Assembly: GCA_014378085.1 (NCBI GenBank)
Contig: JACMOJ010000137.1
Location: 1-6,366 of the forward strand
Length of the DNA stretch: 6,366 nucleotides
Direction of reading: 5' to 3'
Source: Burkholderiales bacterium
Lineage (GTDB): Bacteria; Pseudomonadota; Gammaproteobacteria; Burkholderiales; Usitatibacteraceae
The notes under the pieces were generated by a model that saw only the letters and a program-made list of their open reading frames with translations, did no database searches and had not been told where the DNA came from. Both the position numbers and the translations under genes were made by a program. Position 1 is the first letter of the stretch. Each line of letters begins with the position of its first letter. Positions 2,550 to 6,366 of this stretch are shown here, piece after piece.

Positions 2550-4136
2550 GTGCTGACCTTCGACAATCGTTTTCTCCGTGAACTCCCCGGCGACGCAGAA
2601 ACCACCAACACCACGCGACAGGTGAAGGGTGCGGTGTGGTCACGGGTGTTGCCCACACCGGTGTTGGCACCCAGGATGATTGCGTATTCACACGAAATGG
2701 CCGCGACACTCGGCCTAGACGCGGCGGCGATGCAACGCCCGGAGATAGTTAACGCGCTCGGTGGCAATGGTCTGCTGCCCGGCAGTGAGCCCTACGCCAC
2801 GGTCTACGGCGGACATCAGTTTGGGCATTGGGCGGGGCAGTTGGGTGATGGCCGCGCGATCTATCTCGGTGAAGTTGTGAATACCGCCGGCCAGCACCAT
2901 GAATTGCAGCTCAAAGGTGCGGGGCCCACGCCGTATTCTCGCCGCGCCGATGGCCGGGCCGTGCTTCGGTCATCGATTCGTGAGTTCTTGTGTAGTGAAG
3001 CGATGTTTCATCTTGGCATCCCGACCACACGTGCGCTGAGTCTGGTCGCCACTGGGGACAAGGTGGTGCGCGATATGTTTTACGACGGCAACCCCGAGCG
3101 CGAGCCCGGCGCAATTGTTTGTCGTGTCGCACCATCGTTTACGCGGTTTGGACATTTTGAGATTCACGCCGCACGTAATGACACCGCACTGTTGAGGCAG
3201 TTAGTGGATTTCACCATCGCGCGAGATTTTGCCGAGCTGGATCTACCGCGTGAGCCGATCGAACGAGTGCGCGCGTGGTTTGGTGTGATCGCTGAGCGCA
3301 CCGCCATCATGGTGGCGCACTGGATGCGGGTTGGTTTTGTACACGGCGTGATGAACACCGACAACATGTCCATCTTGGGCCTGACGATTGACTATGGTCC
3401 TTATGGGTGGATCGATAATTTTGATCCCGGCTGGACACCGAATACGACCGACGCGGAGGGCAAGCGTTACTGTTATGGCCGCCAACCGGAAATCGCGCGT
3501 TGGAATCTGGAGCGCTTAGGCTCGGCGCTCTTGATGTTGACCGATGAAGGTAGTGCTGAGGCGAATCGATTTGCCGATTTGTTGCAGGCCGGCATGAATA
3601 AATACGACGAAACGTTTGATCTCGCAACCCGCAACAATCTCGCTGGTAAGTTTGGCTTCGCGTCGTGGCGTGAACAAGATACCCCGTTGGTGAATGACGC
3701 GTTTCGTTTGCTCGCTGAAGCTGAAGTTGATATGACGCTGTTTTTTCGGCGTCTTGCGGACATAGGGTTAGACGCTGCGGCGAATCGTGTATTGCTAGCC
3801 GACGCGTTTTATCGTGACGATCTTCGTGAGAACCATCAGCAGGCGTTTGATTCCTGGCTCGGCCGTTATCTGTCGCGCATCAAGGAAGATGACTTCGCGC
3901 AGTCCGACCGGGCAGGGCAGATGAATCGCTTTAATCCGCTTTATGTCATGCGTAATTATTTGGCGCAGCAGGCGATCGATTTGGCGACTGCCGGCGACAA
4001 CAGTATGGTGGTTGAGCTGCTCGATGTGATGCGTAAGCCTTACGAGGCGCAACCCGGTCGTGAGCGATTCGCTGAAAAGCGCCCCGATTGGGCGCGACAG
4101 AAGGCGGGATGCTCGATGTTGTCGTGTAGTTCGTGA
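2550..4136 (+). CDS. selO: Protein adenylyltransferase SelO (YdiU family), GTG start, Cys at the Sec position
   Basis: SelO is a pseudokinase-fold enzyme that transfers AMP from ATP to Ser, Thr or Tyr of target proteins and has been tied to redox stress. The protein is 528 residues long, normal for bacterial members, and starts with the typical FDNRFLRELPGD. YGGHQFGHWAGQLGDGRA and LQLKGAGPTPYSRRADGRAV carry the nucleotide-binding region with Lys122. HGVMNTDN (residues 265-272) and IDYGP (280-284) hold the catalytic and metal aspartates Asp271 and Asp281, spaced as in characterised SelO. The C-terminus ends Cys-Ser-Ser, so Cys526 is antepenultimate, the position of selenocysteine in animal SELENOO, and a second Cys lies at 521. 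The first possible start after an in-frame TGA at 2538-2540 is GTG; a weak GAG at 2539-2541 could serve as ribosome site. It lies 55 bp behind the oxidase gene. Confidence 0.96.
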   Translation: MLTFDNRFLRELPGDAETTNTTRQVKGAVWSRVLPTPVLAPRMIAYSHEMAATLGLDAAAMQRPEIVNALGGNGLLPGSEPYATVYGGHQFGHWAGQLGDGRAIYLGEVVNTAGQHHELQLKGAGPTPYSRRADGRAVLRSSIREFLCSEAMFHLGIPTTRALSLVATGDKVVRDMFYDGNPEREPGAIVCRVAPSFTRFGHFEIHAARNDTALLRQLVDFTIARDFAELDLPREPIERVRAWFGVIAERTAIMVAHWMRVGFVHGVMNTDNMSILGLTIDYGPYGWIDNFDPGWTPNTTDAEGKRYCYGRQPEIARWNLERLGSALLMLTDEGSAEANRFADLLQAGMNKYDETFDLATRNNLAGKFGFASWREQDTPLVNDAFRLLAEAEVDMTLFFRRLADIGLDAAANRVLLADAFYRDDLRENHQQAFDSWLGRYLSRIKEDDFAQSDRAGQMNRFNPLYVMRNYLAQQAIDLATAGDNSMVVELLDVMRKPYEAQPGRERFAEKRPDWARQKAGCSMLSCSS

Positions 4137-4181
4137 TCGAAGCTTTGGTTAAAGAATGGGTATCTCGAATCTTGTGTCGAA

Positions 4182-4222
4182 TTGGTCGCCGGGAATGTCT
4201 GCTTTGCGGCGGCGGGAACCAA
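4182..4222 (+). repeat. Inverted repeat in the gap between selO and the cassette array
   Basis: TTGGTCGCCG (4182-4191) faces CGGCG (4207-4211) and ACCAA (4218-4222), giving a two-step stem with an internal bulge on one side. The gap 4137-4266 holds no gene. No U-run follows on either strand, so this is not a standard terminator, although it lies between convergent genes where one would be expected. It may also be a worn remnant of an integron site. Confidence 0.35.
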
Positions 4223-4266
4223 CCATATTGACCCAAAGCCGTCCTTTAATTTTCCCGATAGCGGCG

Positions 4267-4324
4267 GTTTAACTTCGCATTGAGCGGGCGCCGACTGGCG
4301 CGCCGCTCGAACGCGGTGTTAGGC
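4267..4324 (-). repeat. attC recombination site, compact 58-bp type (last site of the array)
   Basis: On the plus strand the site begins GTTTAAC (4267-4273) and ends GTTAGGC (4318-4324), matching RYYYAAC and GTTRRRY. Between them the plus strand folds as GCG, TT, GAGCGG, GCGCC, loop GACT, GGCGC, bulged G, CCGCTC, bulged G, AA, CGC. The two unpaired G residues lie on one arm seven bases apart, like the extrahelical bases that tell IntI which strand to use. The plus strand is the bottom strand relative to the leftward cassette, the strand integrases recombine. The TAA of the adjacent gene lies inside the GCCTAAC box of the minus strand. This is the strongest attC in the window. Confidence 0.82.
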
Positions 4325-4780
4325 AGCAGTTTCACCTGTCACGACCGCTTCCAGATTGCCGCCTACCGAAATGCCCGAGAGTTGATTAGCAAACCTGTCA
4401 AGTGCGGCTGGGTCGATGATCAGCGCACAGGACACGCGCGAAATAACCTGAACTTCTTCGTCCGAAGCCAGCGGACCTGAGGACAACTCCAACATGAGGA
4501 GAATATGCCCACGCCGCCCATGTGGGAGTAGGCGCAGATTGACTGTGTAATCGGGCGAGCCATTCGGGTTGATGTACCCGCCCTGCAGGACAGCTTTTCC
4601 CGTGCTTGTGGATGCTAGTTGTTTCGTGGCGGAAGCGAATTCTGAAACGTGTCCAATGGGCAAGTACGCTCGACCAATTCCGCGAAAGGCACCCGACGTC
4701 AATGTTGCTGTAACGTAACACTCGTCATCAGGGTCGTGCGACACGCTTACTCTGAGCTCCGATTGCTCGCGATCCGTCAT
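4319..4780 (-). CDS. Unrecognised cassette-encoded protein, 153 aa
   Basis: This is a soluble, acidic, beta-rich protein of 153 residues with no signal peptide or membrane segment. A central SGAFRGIGRAYLPIGHVSEFASA stretch (residues about 29-51) and VNLRLLPHGRRGHILLMLEL (about 80-99) recall a family of short hypothetical proteins common in cassettes and near toxin-immunity loci, but I cannot name it. The ATG (4778-4780) lies only 10 bases inside the cassette start, leaving a leader without a Shine-Dalgarno sequence, which is common for integron cassettes. The TAA lies within the attC at 4267-4324. Expression would depend on read-through from upstream cassettes or on a promoter in the attC to the right; none is evident. 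No function is claimed. Confidence 0.75.
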   Translation of the reverse strand: MTDREQSELRVSVSHDPDDECYVTATLTSGAFRGIGRAYLPIGHVSEFASATKQLASTSTGKAVLQGGYINPNGSPDYTVNLRLLPHGRRGHILLMLELSSGPLASDEEVQVISRVSCALIIDPAALDRFANQLSGISVGGNLEAVVTGETAA

Positions 4781-4784
4781 TTGT

Positions 4785-4913
4785 GCCGAACACCAGGGGT
4801 TGTAGTCACAGGGTTTTTCATCGAGATCAATGGCTCAAGGTATGAAACCGGGTAGCCGTCGGGAAGGACGGCTTCTGGCCGAAAAGGCAGTCCGCTGCAA
4901 TGACGGGTTGGGC
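4785..4913 (-). repeat. attC recombination site, long type (129 bp)
   Basis: The right end on the plus strand is GTTGGGC (4907-4913), a perfect GTTRRRY; read on the minus strand it is followed by a TTGCAGCGGAC box as in many attC left halves. The left end is GCCGAAC (4785-4791), pairing at six of seven positions. TTGTAG (4800-4805) pairs with CTGCAA (4895-4900) with one wobble. A perfect 7-bp hairpin, AGCCGTC (4854-4860) and GACGGCT (4867-4873), lies inside. It shares sequence with the site at 5207-5338, including 13 identical bases at 4873-4885 and 5297-5309. It begins 9 bases after the membrane-protein stop codon. Confidence 0.68.
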
Positions 4914-4922
4914 CACACATGC

Positions 4923-5168
4923 TCATGACTTCCACGCCCGCCGCACCAGCACCGGGAGCAGACCGAGCAGCAGAACCGAGGCTGCTACTACAGCCGCGCA
5001 TACGGCGACCGCGACAACTGCGGCGTACAACCAGAGCGGCTGCCAGTTTGGATGAATGCTTGCCCCGTACTCCATATCGAACCCGAATGATGCAAGTCCT
5101 GCGAGGACACCGCAGAGCACTCCAACGACCAACGGTCCCATCAACGTCTGCTTGGTGTGCTGATTCAT
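4923..5168 (-). CDS. Small two-helix membrane protein, 81 aa, function unknown
   Basis: The protein has two hydrophobic segments, at residues about 9-30 and 45-75, separated by a polar loop with several aromatics (DMEYGASIHPNWQ). The C-terminus, RRAWKS, is positively charged and the N-terminus carries a lysine, so both ends should lie in the cytoplasm with the loop outside. The second segment is unusually rich in alanine and valine. The ATG at 5168 is chosen because it opens a normal N-terminus (MNQHTKQ); a TTG at 5183 would add five residues. Neither has a well-placed ribosome site. It is the only gene of its cassette, and an attC starts 9 bases after its stop. Tiny membrane proteins without known relatives are typical cassette cargo. 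No family is recognised. Confidence 0.68.
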   Translation of the reverse strand: MNQHTKQTLMGPLVVGVLCGVLAGLASFGFDMEYGASIHPNWQPLWLYAAVVAVAVCAAVVAASVLLLGLLPVLVRRAWKS

Positions 5169-5206
5169 TCCGGTGATGTCCAACTTAATTTATGGCACAG
5201 CACCCA

Positions 5207-5338
5207 GTTAAACACCGGGGGGAAAAGAGTCAAGTTGCTTTTCACTTGATTCAGCGGATCAATATATGAAATCAGAAAGCAATCGCGAACAGCCGGTTCT
5301 GGCCGAAAATTACCGCGGCCTAGGTGACCTTCTAATGT
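5207..5338 (-). repeat. attC-like site, long type, with a worn R'' box
   Basis: This stretch matches the site at 4785-4913 along its length: an AAACACCGGGG end against GAACACCAGGGG, the shared 13-mer TTCTGGCCGAAAA at 5297-5309, and a GGTCA plus CCGCGG segment in the left half on the minus strand. The crossover end on the minus strand is GGTG then TTTAAC. The opposite box reads ACATTAG (5338-5332) where GCCTAAC is expected, three differences, and the antitoxin gene reads straight through it to a stop at 5310-5312. The palindrome TCAAGT (5230-5235) and ACTTGA (5244-5249) lies inside. It may no longer recombine well. Confidence 0.55.
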
Positions 5339-5624
5339 CCAAATCTTTGCCGACTGCACCGAATATCGCGGCGAGGTTGTCCATGCTCGGATTACCTTGC
5401 ACCGAGAGCATCCGGTGAAGACTTTTACTTGGTTTAGCTGTTATCTGCGCTAATTCCTCGAACCCAATCGTCGCATTCACGAGGTCACGCAAAACTAACC
5501 TTGCCAACTGAGGTTCGCCGTTTGCCATAAGCGCAACAGCCTCATCTAGCAAGGCTTTACCGAAGGCCGGGTCACGCTCAGCACGTTCGACGACTGTTCT
5601 CTTAAAGTCTCTGGTTAGTGCCAT
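5310..5624 (-). CDS. HTH antitoxin of a RelE/HigB-type module (COG3636-like addiction module antidote)
   Basis: The protein is 104 residues and all helical in character. It opens with DFKRTVVERAERDPAFGKALLDEA and carries the hallmark LVLRDLVNATIGFEELAQ (residues about 43-60), then PSKSLHRMLSVQGNPSMDNLAAIFGAV (65-91). Residues about 54-75 form the helix-turn-helix of the Xre/Cro type. Family members neutralise the partner toxin and repress the operon. The ATG (5622-5624) comes 5 bases after the toxin stop, the toxin-first order typical of this family, so translation is probably coupled. The last nine residues, DIRRSPRPR, are encoded inside the attC-like site at 5207-5338 and differ from the usual end of relatives, suggesting that the C-terminus was set by cassette formation. 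Confidence 0.92.
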   Translation of the reverse strand: MALTRDFKRTVVERAERDPAFGKALLDEAVALMANGEPQLARLVLRDLVNATIGFEELAQITAKPSKSLHRMLSVQGNPSMDNLAAIFGAVGKDLDIRRSPRPR

Positions 5625-5629
5625 GTTCT

Positions 5630-6001
5630 TTACCCAATTCCTCTTGTCAGTTTCAGCTTGGATTTGACGTCGGACAACCCCAGCTTTTTACGTAACTTAT
5701 ATTCGGCATGGAGGCCCTTTGCCTGTGCAATATCTCTCGTCTGGGTGCGCTTGGTTCCGCCACCGAAAAGAACTACGAGAGTCGACCCGTCCTTCGCCAA
5801 ATAGATTCGATAACCGGGGCCCCAATCAATACGATATTCACCAATGCCGTCAAACCATTTGACGTTCGATGTATTTTCCATCTCGAGCCGAAGAAGTGCA
5901 GTTGCAACCTTTGCGGCGGCGTTAGCCTCCAGACCGTCGAACCATTTTCTGTACGGGCTAGACTCGTCTTCACGTATGTACTCTGCAACTTGCATAAGCA
6001 T
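5630..6001 (-). CDS. RelE/ParE-superfamily toxin (HigB / addiction module killer protein type)
   Basis: Toxins of this family are small ribonucleases that usually cut mRNA on the ribosome and halt growth when the antitoxin is lost. The signature is clear: SSPYRKWFDGL (residues 14-24), VKWFDGIGEYRIDWGPGYRIYLA (47-69), LVVLFGGGTKRTQTRDIAQAK (75-95). The basic and aromatic residues of the EYRI, GPGYRIY and KRTQ segments are those expected near the active site. At 123 residues it is longer than the usual roughly 100, owing to a lysine-rich tail (about 105-123). The ATG at 6001 is the longest start; the ATG at 5995 gives MQVAEYIRED, the more usual beginning of relatives, and is equally possible. 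It forms an operon with the antitoxin 5 bases downstream and fills one cassette with it. Confidence 0.9.
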   Translation of the reverse strand: MLMQVAEYIREDESSPYRKWFDGLEANAAAKVATALLRLEMENTSNVKWFDGIGEYRIDWGPGYRIYLAKDGSTLVVLFGGGTKRTQTRDIAQAKGLHAEYKLRKKLGLSDVKSKLKLTRGIG

Positions 6002-6006
6002 TTCGT

Positions 6007-6035
6007 ATAGTACCGTTTATGTTACTTTCATGCAA
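6007..6035 (-). promoter_or_regulatory. Candidate promoter of the toxin-antitoxin cassette
   Basis: On the minus strand TTGCAT (6035-6030) and TACTAT (6012-6007) are 17 bases apart, a sigma-70-like arrangement with a partial match to each consensus. An alternative -10, TATACG, overlaps at 6009-6004. Transcription from the main -10 would start near 6000, so the message would have almost no leader and the ATG at 5995 would be the more natural start. Toxin-antitoxin cassettes usually carry their own promoter, unlike other cassettes. Confidence 0.45.
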
Positions 6036-6084
6036 GTTAAACAGTCGACAGGCGGTGTCAGCGCTTCCGCGAATTGAAAGTAAC
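6021..6084. promoter_or_regulatory. Candidate operator: perfect 10-bp inverted repeat at the toxin-antitoxin promoter
   Basis: GTTACTTTCA (6021-6030) is repeated exactly in inverted form as TGAAAGTAAC (6075-6084), with 44 bases between. The first half-site sits between the proposed -35 and -10 boxes and the second lies upstream. A smaller palindrome, GACA and TGTC around GGCGG, lies between them (about 6046-6059). This is the arrangement expected for an operator bound by the HTH antitoxin, possibly at two separated half-sites. Binding by this antitoxin is inference. Confidence 0.45.
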
Positions 6085-6122
6085 TCTACGTTTTGCGATC
6101 TCGCATTTAGTCAACGAGCATT

Positions 6123-6217
6123 GCCGAACACCCAATAGCTCGGAGTTCGATCCAATTCATCGCGCGAAAATATCAAATCAGACCGCGCCCGCGTAGCGCC
6201 GCTTTTGACCGCTAGGC
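6123..6217 (-). repeat. attC-like site (about 95 bp) between two toxin-antitoxin cassettes
   Basis: The left end on the plus strand is GCCGAACACC (6123-6132), identical over ten bases to the end of the attC at 4785. The right end is GCTAGGC (6211-6217), one base from GTTAGGC. CAATAGC (6133-6139) pairs with GCTTTTG (6201-6207) with a single mismatch, and the minus strand shows GGTCA then AGCGG after the box, as in the other sites. The stop codon TAG of the antitoxin at the right edge falls inside the box. The middle is not clearly paired. Confidence 0.55.
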
Positions 6218-6366
6218 GGCAATCAATACGTCCGCTGAAATACCAAAATCAGCGTGCAGTTTACGGATCATCGCCAACGAAAGTGGTCGCTTGCGGCTAA
6301 GAACCTCATAAGCGCGGTTTGGCCGTCCAAAAACTGGCGTCCAGTCGTGAATCGTCAGGCCGCGTA
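6212..6366 (-). CDS. higA: HigA-like HTH antitoxin, C-terminal 50 residues (cut by the window edge)
   Basis: The visible end reads from a glycine-leucine-threonine helix through VFGRPNRAYEVLSRKRPLSLAMIRKLH to ADFGISADVLIAA. This is the closing part of the HigA type of Xre-family helix-turn-helix antitoxin (COG5499-like), whose relatives show SxVSEVLxGKRxLSLxMIRxLH and GIPAxVL at the same places. It is a different family from the antitoxin at 5310-5624. The N-terminus and, in the usual order, a HigB toxin gene should lie just beyond the right edge; neither can be seen. Its TAG (6212-6214) is inside an attC-like box, placing it in the next cassette of the array. Confidence 0.85.
   Translation of the reverse strand, partial: RGLTIHDWTPVFGRPNRAYEVLSRKRPLSLAMIRKLHADFGISADVLIAA

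What the first reader, a model, noticed from the sequence alone, without database searches (positions are those of the whole stretch)
4267..6366. Unmarked integron cassette array, or CALIN, ending next to selO
Four attC-like palindromes alternate with short leftward genes, two stop codons fall inside GCCTAAC-type boxes, and three sites share a GGTG/TT crossover end. The left half is ordinary chromosome, so about 4267 would be the distal boundary of a chromosomal integron. The site sequences are unlike the well-known Vibrio or class 1 ones, so this could be a poorly described attC family.
Basis: partly seen in the sequence, partly recalled or inferred. Interest (0 to 1): 0.82.

Follow-up and report, generated by a model that had tools for sequence, protein, structure and literature searches.

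The report
One attC among lineage-specific spacer repeats
Next to a housekeeping gene this bacterium carries a run of small accessory genes; one of them ends in a genuine integron recombination site, while the other gaps hold copies of a DNA repeat found in its close relatives, for which I found no published description.

Summary
Site 1 (4267-4324, minus) is a 58-nt attC: R'' and R' boxes, a hairpin with bulges on the expected arm, the stop codon of the 153-aa gene inside R'', and 25.3 bits against a best control of 17.7 in 80 loci. Sites 2-4 are not attC: they fold no better than shuffles and score at background. They are copies of a ~95-nt non-palindromic repeat, rep1 (TCGGCCA...RGTGTT). A model built without window copies finds them at E 4e-16, 1.5e-23 and 2.5e-10. 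The shared GGTG/TT end is rep1's right edge. Next to site 2 lies a lone attC left half (4890-4913). A second repeat, rep2 (4192-4264), begins within two bases of the attC. rep1 occurs in 4 of 28 family genomes, the window's nearest relatives (29, 15, 12, 6 copies), in same-strand clusters, and does not track IntI. So this is a cassette remnant in a variable spot beside selO, mixed with lineage-specific repeats. Within the window it is neither a proven CALIN nor a new attC family. rep1 and rep2 tend to bracket accessory genes; how is unproven.

The parts
2550..4136 (+). selO, the chromosomal gene left of the variable stretch
   Evidence: PF02696, 401 bits
4192..4264 (-). rep2, a second lineage repeat, starting within two bases of the attC
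   Evidence: nhmmer model from five copies outside the window: 56.8 bits, E 4.8e-16; 0 hits in 80 control loci. The seeds were picked after noticing the likeness to this flank
4267..4324 (-). attC of the orfA cassette: R'' GCCTAAC, R' GTTAAAC, two bulged bases on the L'' arm
   Evidence: 25.3 bits with R2, best of 80 control loci 17.7; 22.2 bits with R1, best control 20.0; fold z -4.34
4319..4780 (-). orfA, 153 aa, no known family; stop codon inside R''
   Evidence: 11 relatives, none in 369 genomes of the class
   Evidence: R3: 55.9 bits, E 4.2e-16
4890..4913 (-). lone left half (R''-L'') of an attC, GCCCAACCCGTCATTGCAGCGGAC
   Evidence: 22.8 bits in a half-site matrix; 99% null 6.1, null maximum 19.9; 87% over 31 nt to a G002 array attC
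4923..5183 (-). orfB, 86 aa from TTG, no family over its cut-off
   Evidence: R3: 79.7 bits, E 1.5e-23
5310..5624 (-). putative antitoxin of the toxin next to it (by position; no family match)
5630..6001 (-). RelE/ParE-type toxin of a type II toxin-antitoxin pair
   Evidence: TIGR02683, 81.2 bits, cut-off 62.85
   Evidence: R3: 37.4 bits, E 2.5e-10, over 6149-6211
6212..6364 (-). end of a gene resembling a HigA-type antitoxin (recalled), cut by the window edge
   Evidence: no family match; the same gene end lies before a rep1 copy in G481 (L300)

Best explanation
The stretch is a variable insertion spot beside selO that holds small accessory genes and a remnant of integron cassettes. Shown: the orfA unit ends in a bona fide attC oriented leftward, and the left half of another attC survives upstream of orfA. 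Inferred: an integron integrase once inserted this cassette by cutting the folded window + strand at G|TTAAAC; whether an integrase lies further right is unknown. Shown: the other three 'sites' are copies of rep1, a ~95-nt repeat of this lineage lying between genes of the same strand, and rep2 follows the attC. Inferred: rep1 and rep2 are non-coding, non-attC intergenic repeats, and recombination between copies, probably homologous, moves and duplicates the genes next to them.
For: attC. rep1: 22 copies in the G598 stretches; model without window copies finds all three window copies; no conserved pairs, no codon periodicity; 4 of 28 family genomes, the nearest relatives by SelO (83-86% for three, 73% for G001). 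Shared blocks that change partners at rep1: window/L205 78.9% over 801 nt, window/L300 82.7% over 168 nt, L301/L303 99.3% over 439 nt. The spot beside selO differs in G481, G598 and G628. rep1-rep2 pairs within 3 kb: 30 same strand, 0 opposite.
Against: Homologous recombination is not shown: copies are only ~70-80% alike, and the sharp right edge plus the rep1/rep2 pairing could mean a dedicated system. One G598 copy of rep1 folds somewhat better than shuffles (z -2.09). Only 5 of the rep1-bearing loci of relatives gave an attC match.
Confidence: 0.8

Rival explanations
1. One reading: a cassette array or CALIN with four attC sites of a poorly described family, sites 2-4 being divergent attC.
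For: Sites lie between gene stop and next gene start, one orientation, right edge G|TT; an attC left half lies beside site 2; attC matches occur downstream of rep1 on the same strand in 5 loci of relatives, 7 matches.
Against: No conserved fold and ordinary folds; CM scores at background; of 56 copies only 2 have an attC left half and 3 a right half above the 99% null; present in G481 without an IntI match.
Confidence: 0.05
2. rep1 and rep2 are the two ends of a separate gene-cassette or mini-transposon system whose recombinase is not IntI, perhaps the small tyrosine recombinase seen in relatives.
For: 15 of 16 rep2 copies have a same-strand rep1 upstream, 9 of them at 534-847 nt; same-strand clusters of rep1 in G481, 6 of 6 neighbour pairs; the recombinase has a partial rep1 beside it in 3 of 3 copies and is absent from 24 of 24 rep1-free family genomes.
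Against: The recombinase was not found in G481 or G598, the two genomes richest in rep1. Edges are not inverted copies of each other. The rep2 counts come from loci chosen because they hold rep1.
Confidence: 0.12
3. rep1 is an attI-like or secondary IntI site: cassettes such as orfA were inserted at its G|TT edge.
For: Right edge RGTG|TT, and attC-bearing genes lie downstream in the same orientation. L305 and L316 share the DNA after rep1 at 90.6% while the first ~29 nt of their rep1 copies differ.
Against: Does not explain rep1-bounded genes without attC, such as the toxin pair; rep1 is not next to the intI genes of G598 (L242, L243).
Confidence: 0.08

Closest known systems
Integron gene cassette with attC; CALIN (cluster of attC sites lacking an integrase)
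   Same: orfA plus the 4267-4324 site: boxes, hairpin, bulge side, stop codon in R'', small gene of unknown function
   Different: One whole attC and one half in the window; other gene gaps hold rep1, which has no attC fold; no integrase visible in the window
Interspersed intergenic repeats of bacteria (REP, ERIC and the like; class recalled)
   Same: Short, multicopy, non-coding by the tests made, intergenic, restricted to a lineage
   Different: No conserved palindrome, same strand as the neighbouring genes, clustered with accessory genes and paired with a second repeat

Membership tests
attC (site 1) | R'' RYYYAAC and R' GTTRRRY at the ends (consensus recalled) | tested here: met
   GCCTAAC ... 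GTTAAAC
attC (site 1) | Imperfect hairpin with extrahelical bases on one arm | tested here: met
   z -4.34 and -3.39; two bulges on the L'' arm as in intI-array sites
attC (site 1) | Covariance-model match above controls | tested here: met
   25.3 bits, best control 17.7; own model, not IntegronFinder's
attC (site 1) | Recombined by an integron integrase | not testable with these tools
   needs an assay
attC (sites 2, 3, 4) | Hairpin and covariance-model match | tested here: not met
   z -1.23 to +0.25; 11.5 bits, none listed, 6.6 bits on the other strand; control maximum 11.7
CALIN | At least two attC sites without intI nearby (IntegronFinder 2 default) | tested here: not met
   one whole site plus one half in the window; DNA right of 6366 unseen
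Integron | intI and attI beside the array | not testable with these tools
   no genome held for the window
Interspersed intergenic repeat (rep1) | Many dispersed copies in a genome | tested here: met
   29, 15, 12 and 6 matches in four genomes
Interspersed intergenic repeat (rep1) | Non-coding | tested here: met
   information per codon position 1.12, 1.18, 1.14 bits; an indirect test
MITE-like transposable repeat (rep1) | Terminal inverted repeats and target-site duplication | not tested
   edges TCGGCCA and RGTGTT are not inverted copies by eye; duplications were not examined

The most novel reading that the evidence does not exclude
rep1 and rep2 are the two ends of a previously undescribed gene-cassette system: accessory genes bracketed by a conserved 5' end (rep1, ...RGTG|TT) and a conserved 3' end (rep2, GCCGCTTTCGGG...), collected in same-strand arrays in one betaproteobacterial lineage, either independent of the integron integrase or borrowing it at G|TT.
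Probability: 0.12. Interest if true: 0.8.

Novelty: new variant of a known kind. Interest (0 to 1): 0.42.

Why it matters
Spacer repeats of this sort can be taken for attC sites when sequence is read by eye; telling them apart corrects the call. If the paired repeats do delimit mobile genes, they would be a second way of keeping exchangeable gene arrays, living at the same spots as integron cassettes, and a directly testable one.

Tried and rejected
Rfam gave only chance matches. The box-and-fold scan also listed 1564-1693 inside a coding gene; it is weaker and was not listed by the covariance models. The core of rep1 as a general attC-array motif: CTTCTGGCCGA and CYGCTTNTGGCCGA found nothing in the 80 and 120 loci then held, CGGYCANAAGCSG 3 of 125. 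In 339 genomes of the class TTTCGGCCAGAANCSG lies at 19 places in 14 genomes, the reversed pattern at 4, so the core itself is more widely spread than rep1. rep1 as coding sequence: codon positions equally conserved. rep1 as promoter: 0 sigma-70-like sites in 4130-6366. rep1 within attC sites in general: rejected by half-site counts. rep1 on plasmids or phages: best plasmid E 0.3, no phage match. The region 4240-6366: 5 plasmid records at 60-80% identity, no phage record. Viral contigs: no orfA relative, five toxin relatives at 57-58% not pursued, 30 stretches with a 17-base rep1 pattern, whose flanks scored at most 43 against sites 2 and 3, mostly the pattern itself. selO neighbourhoods of four relatives: no attC match. 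Literature: searches (1 paper; 0; 13 papers, unrelated by title and abstract start; 2) gave no description of these repeats; none of these papers was opened.
Full report
What is in the window. The left two thirds are ordinary chromosome ending in selO (2550-4136, PF02696). No genome is held for the window. The closest named relative by SelO among the 80 loci kept is a Nitrosomonadaceae MAG (L001, 72%). Right of selO the genes of the finding run leftwards: a 153-aa protein (orfA), an 86-aa protein (orfB), a putative antitoxin with a RelE/ParE toxin (TIGR02683, 81.2 bits, cut-off 62.85), and the end of a gene that resembles a HigA antitoxin (recalled; no family hit).

Testing the four sites. I searched 47 genomes of SelO relatives for integron integrases (25 of 47 over the cut-off), fetched 20 intI neighbourhoods and collected attC sites there. 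A box-and-fold scan found site 1; in 80 control loci (1.52 Mb) it gave 9 hits, strands counted apart. A covariance model from 15 attC sites (R1) found 66 sites in the 20 loci at the cut-off used, in 13 of the 20, all on the strand expected from intI. A second model from those 66 (R2) gives site 1 25.3 bits on the minus and 19.4 on the plus strand. The best match in 80 control loci was 17.7 bits with R2; with R1 the best in 79 was 20.0 against 22.2 for site 1. So site 1 clears the controls, at the low end of true sites. Both strands fold better than shuffles (z -4.34 and -3.39), the bulges lie on the L'' arm as in the array sites, and the orfA stop codon is inside R''. Of 12 aligned orfA proteins, 8 end in Ala-Ala, 2 in Ala-Val, and the 2 closest relatives run two residues longer, so the overlap of stop and box need not hold throughout the family.

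Sites 2, 3 and 4 fail. Their folds are ordinary (z -1.23 to +0.25 over both strands). Site 2 scores 11.5 bits; one of 9 matches listed in 86 kb of controls reaches 11.7, and a further control locus gave at most 8.5. Site 3 has no listed match and site 4 has 6.6 bits on the opposite strand. Beside site 2 there is a left attC half at 4890-4913: 22.8 bits in a half-site matrix against a 99% null of 6.1 and a null maximum of 19.9. I found no matching right half.

What sites 2-4 are. Sites 2 and 3 share a 70-nt block (score 38, maximum 24 in 500 single-base shuffles). Following the toxin gene led to G598, where the same toxin pair lies in another context and is followed by the same block. The G598 copy alone finds 15 matches at E 1e-4 or better in that genome. 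Iterated nhmmer, seeded with the G598 copy and sites 2 and 3, found the block at all three window sites and at 22 places in the G598 stretches; site 4 was not in the seed. A sequence-only model from 18 G598 copies and no window copy (R3) finds site 3 at 79.7 bits (E 1.5e-23), site 2 at 55.9 (4.2e-16) and site 4 at 37.4 (2.5e-10). I call the block rep1. It runs from TCGGCCA to RGTGTT, about 95 nt. Across 22 copies, three of them the window's, RNAalifold predicts no pairs, codon positions are equally conserved, and information falls to near zero past GGTGTT. One G598 copy on its own folds somewhat better than shuffles (z -2.09).

Distribution. In the family of G598, 4 of 28 genomes carry rep1, with 29, 15, 12 and 6 matches (at most 150 candidates per genome were scored). 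In 399 genomes of the order 5 have a match, two of them single marginal hits; G001 is not among the five (stricter filters, 10 scored per genome). The carriers are the window's nearest relatives by SelO; six rep1-free genomes with a SelO match lie at 55-67%. Among carriers, IntI is intact in G598 (two copies), has four in-frame TAG in G628, and has no match at E 1e-60 in G481 or G001; of the 24 rep1-free family genomes 14 have such a match. So rep1 does not follow IntI. In G481, 15 copies lie on one 3.39-Mb contig with 6 neighbour pairs under 5 kb, all same-strand; random placement gives 0.31 on average and never 6 in 200,000 trials (the 5-kb limit was chosen after seeing the positions). In 1.92 Mb of other loci, matches at E 0.01 or better lie only in the G628 and G001 loci included there; the next is a partial one at E 0.085 in G598.

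Relation to attC and rep2. In rep1-bearing stretches of relatives R2 finds 7 attC matches (1, 6) in 5 loci, all on the strand of the neighbouring rep1 and downstream of it; two of the seven are weak (24.8 and 23.4 bits). The 34 loci with rep1 include the window and two that overlap, so most rep1 loci show no attC. The other three hits are in intI loci without rep1. Just after the window's attC comes a second repeat, rep2 (4192-4264): a model from five copies of G598, G481 and G628 finds it at 56.8 bits (E 4.8e-16), with 0 hits in 80 control loci. The seeds were picked for likeness to this flank. rep2 also starts within about 15 bases of an attC match in L246, L305 and L313. A half-site matrix puts 4 of 14 rep2 starts above the 99% null for an attC right half just upstream and 7 above the 95% level; the window's own (2.6 bits) is only above the 95% level. 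Of 16 rep2 copies, 15 have a rep1 upstream on the same strand, 9 of them at 534-847 nt and 6 at 1243-1915 nt; the sixteenth has one 548 nt downstream; within 3 kb there are 30 same-strand pairs and 0 opposite. In two places (L241, L301) rep2 leads into rep1 at an offset of 89-90 nt between genes. So accessory genes tend to have rep1 before them and rep2, with or without an attC, after them. These loci were chosen because they hold rep1, so the rep2 figures are no genome-wide rate. Of ten open frames that follow a rep1, eight have no Pfam family at E 0.01.

Mechanism. For site 1 the anatomy is that of a cassette end; insertion by IntI at G|TTAAAC is inferred from the family, not shown. For rep1 the facts are shared gene-plus-rep1 blocks (window/L205 78.9% over 801 nt, window/L300 82.7% over 168 nt), a shared rep1-plus-gene block (L301/L303, 99.3% over 439 nt), and other pairs whose likeness starts or stops inside rep1, often near its first 30 nt. 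Recombination between copies is the simplest reading. A dedicated recombinase is possible: the right edge is G|TT, and a tyrosine recombinase (185 aa or more, PF00589) lies beside a partial rep1 in 3 of 3 copies, but G481 and G598 lack it. The spot beside selO is variable: in G481, G598 and G628 about 1.7-2.4 kb of differing DNA separates selO from the next shared block, with rep1-like cores after selO in G481 and G628 and a rep1 copy near selO in G628.

Verdict. One attC is real and the cassette idea holds for orfA. The array of four attC sites and the new attC family are not supported. What may be new is the repeat pair and its bracketing of accessory genes; I did not find it described (searches; listings and abstract starts only). 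IntegronFinder definitions come from passages of PMC9024848 and the statements on attI and attC from passages of PMC8946536. The box consensus, the bulge rule and the names of repeat classes are recalled.

Noticed in passing
L312:3-590, L314:14959-15531, L320 (G628, G001): A small tyrosine recombinase gene (185 aa or more, cut by contig ends in G628, one TAG in G001) points towards a partial rep1 copy in 3 of 3 cases.
   Followed up: partly
L301:5310-5749 and L303:3599-4038 (G481): A 439-bp block of rep1 plus a gene resembling the toxin BrnT (recalled) is duplicated at 99.3%, starting at rep1's left edge and ending at GGTG.
   Followed up: partly
L314:3573-3710 (G628): A rep1 copy near selO is followed by a lone attC right half (CCTGAACTCAAACATTAGGT), the mirror case of the lone left half in the window.
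   Followed up: no
L242:7862-7990 and 8999-9127 (G598): The intI array of this relative has attC sites of 129 nt with long, strong hairpins, quite unlike the 58-nt site in the window.
   Followed up: no
L164, L171-L174 (G058): Another genome of the class carries five copies of TTTCGGCCAGAAGCGG, most preceded by a CCGC or CAGC, so the rep1 core belongs to a wider family of short motifs.
   Followed up: no
L205:9244-9370 and L333 near 9319 (G598, G481): The rep1 core also heads a different ~110-nt body (ACGTAGCGCGTG...GCTGACCAAATTTCTGAGG), once before the toxin pair and once after selO.
   Followed up: no
window 4319-4780: orfA belongs to a small family: 11 relatives found, none in 369 genomes of the class.
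   Followed up: partly
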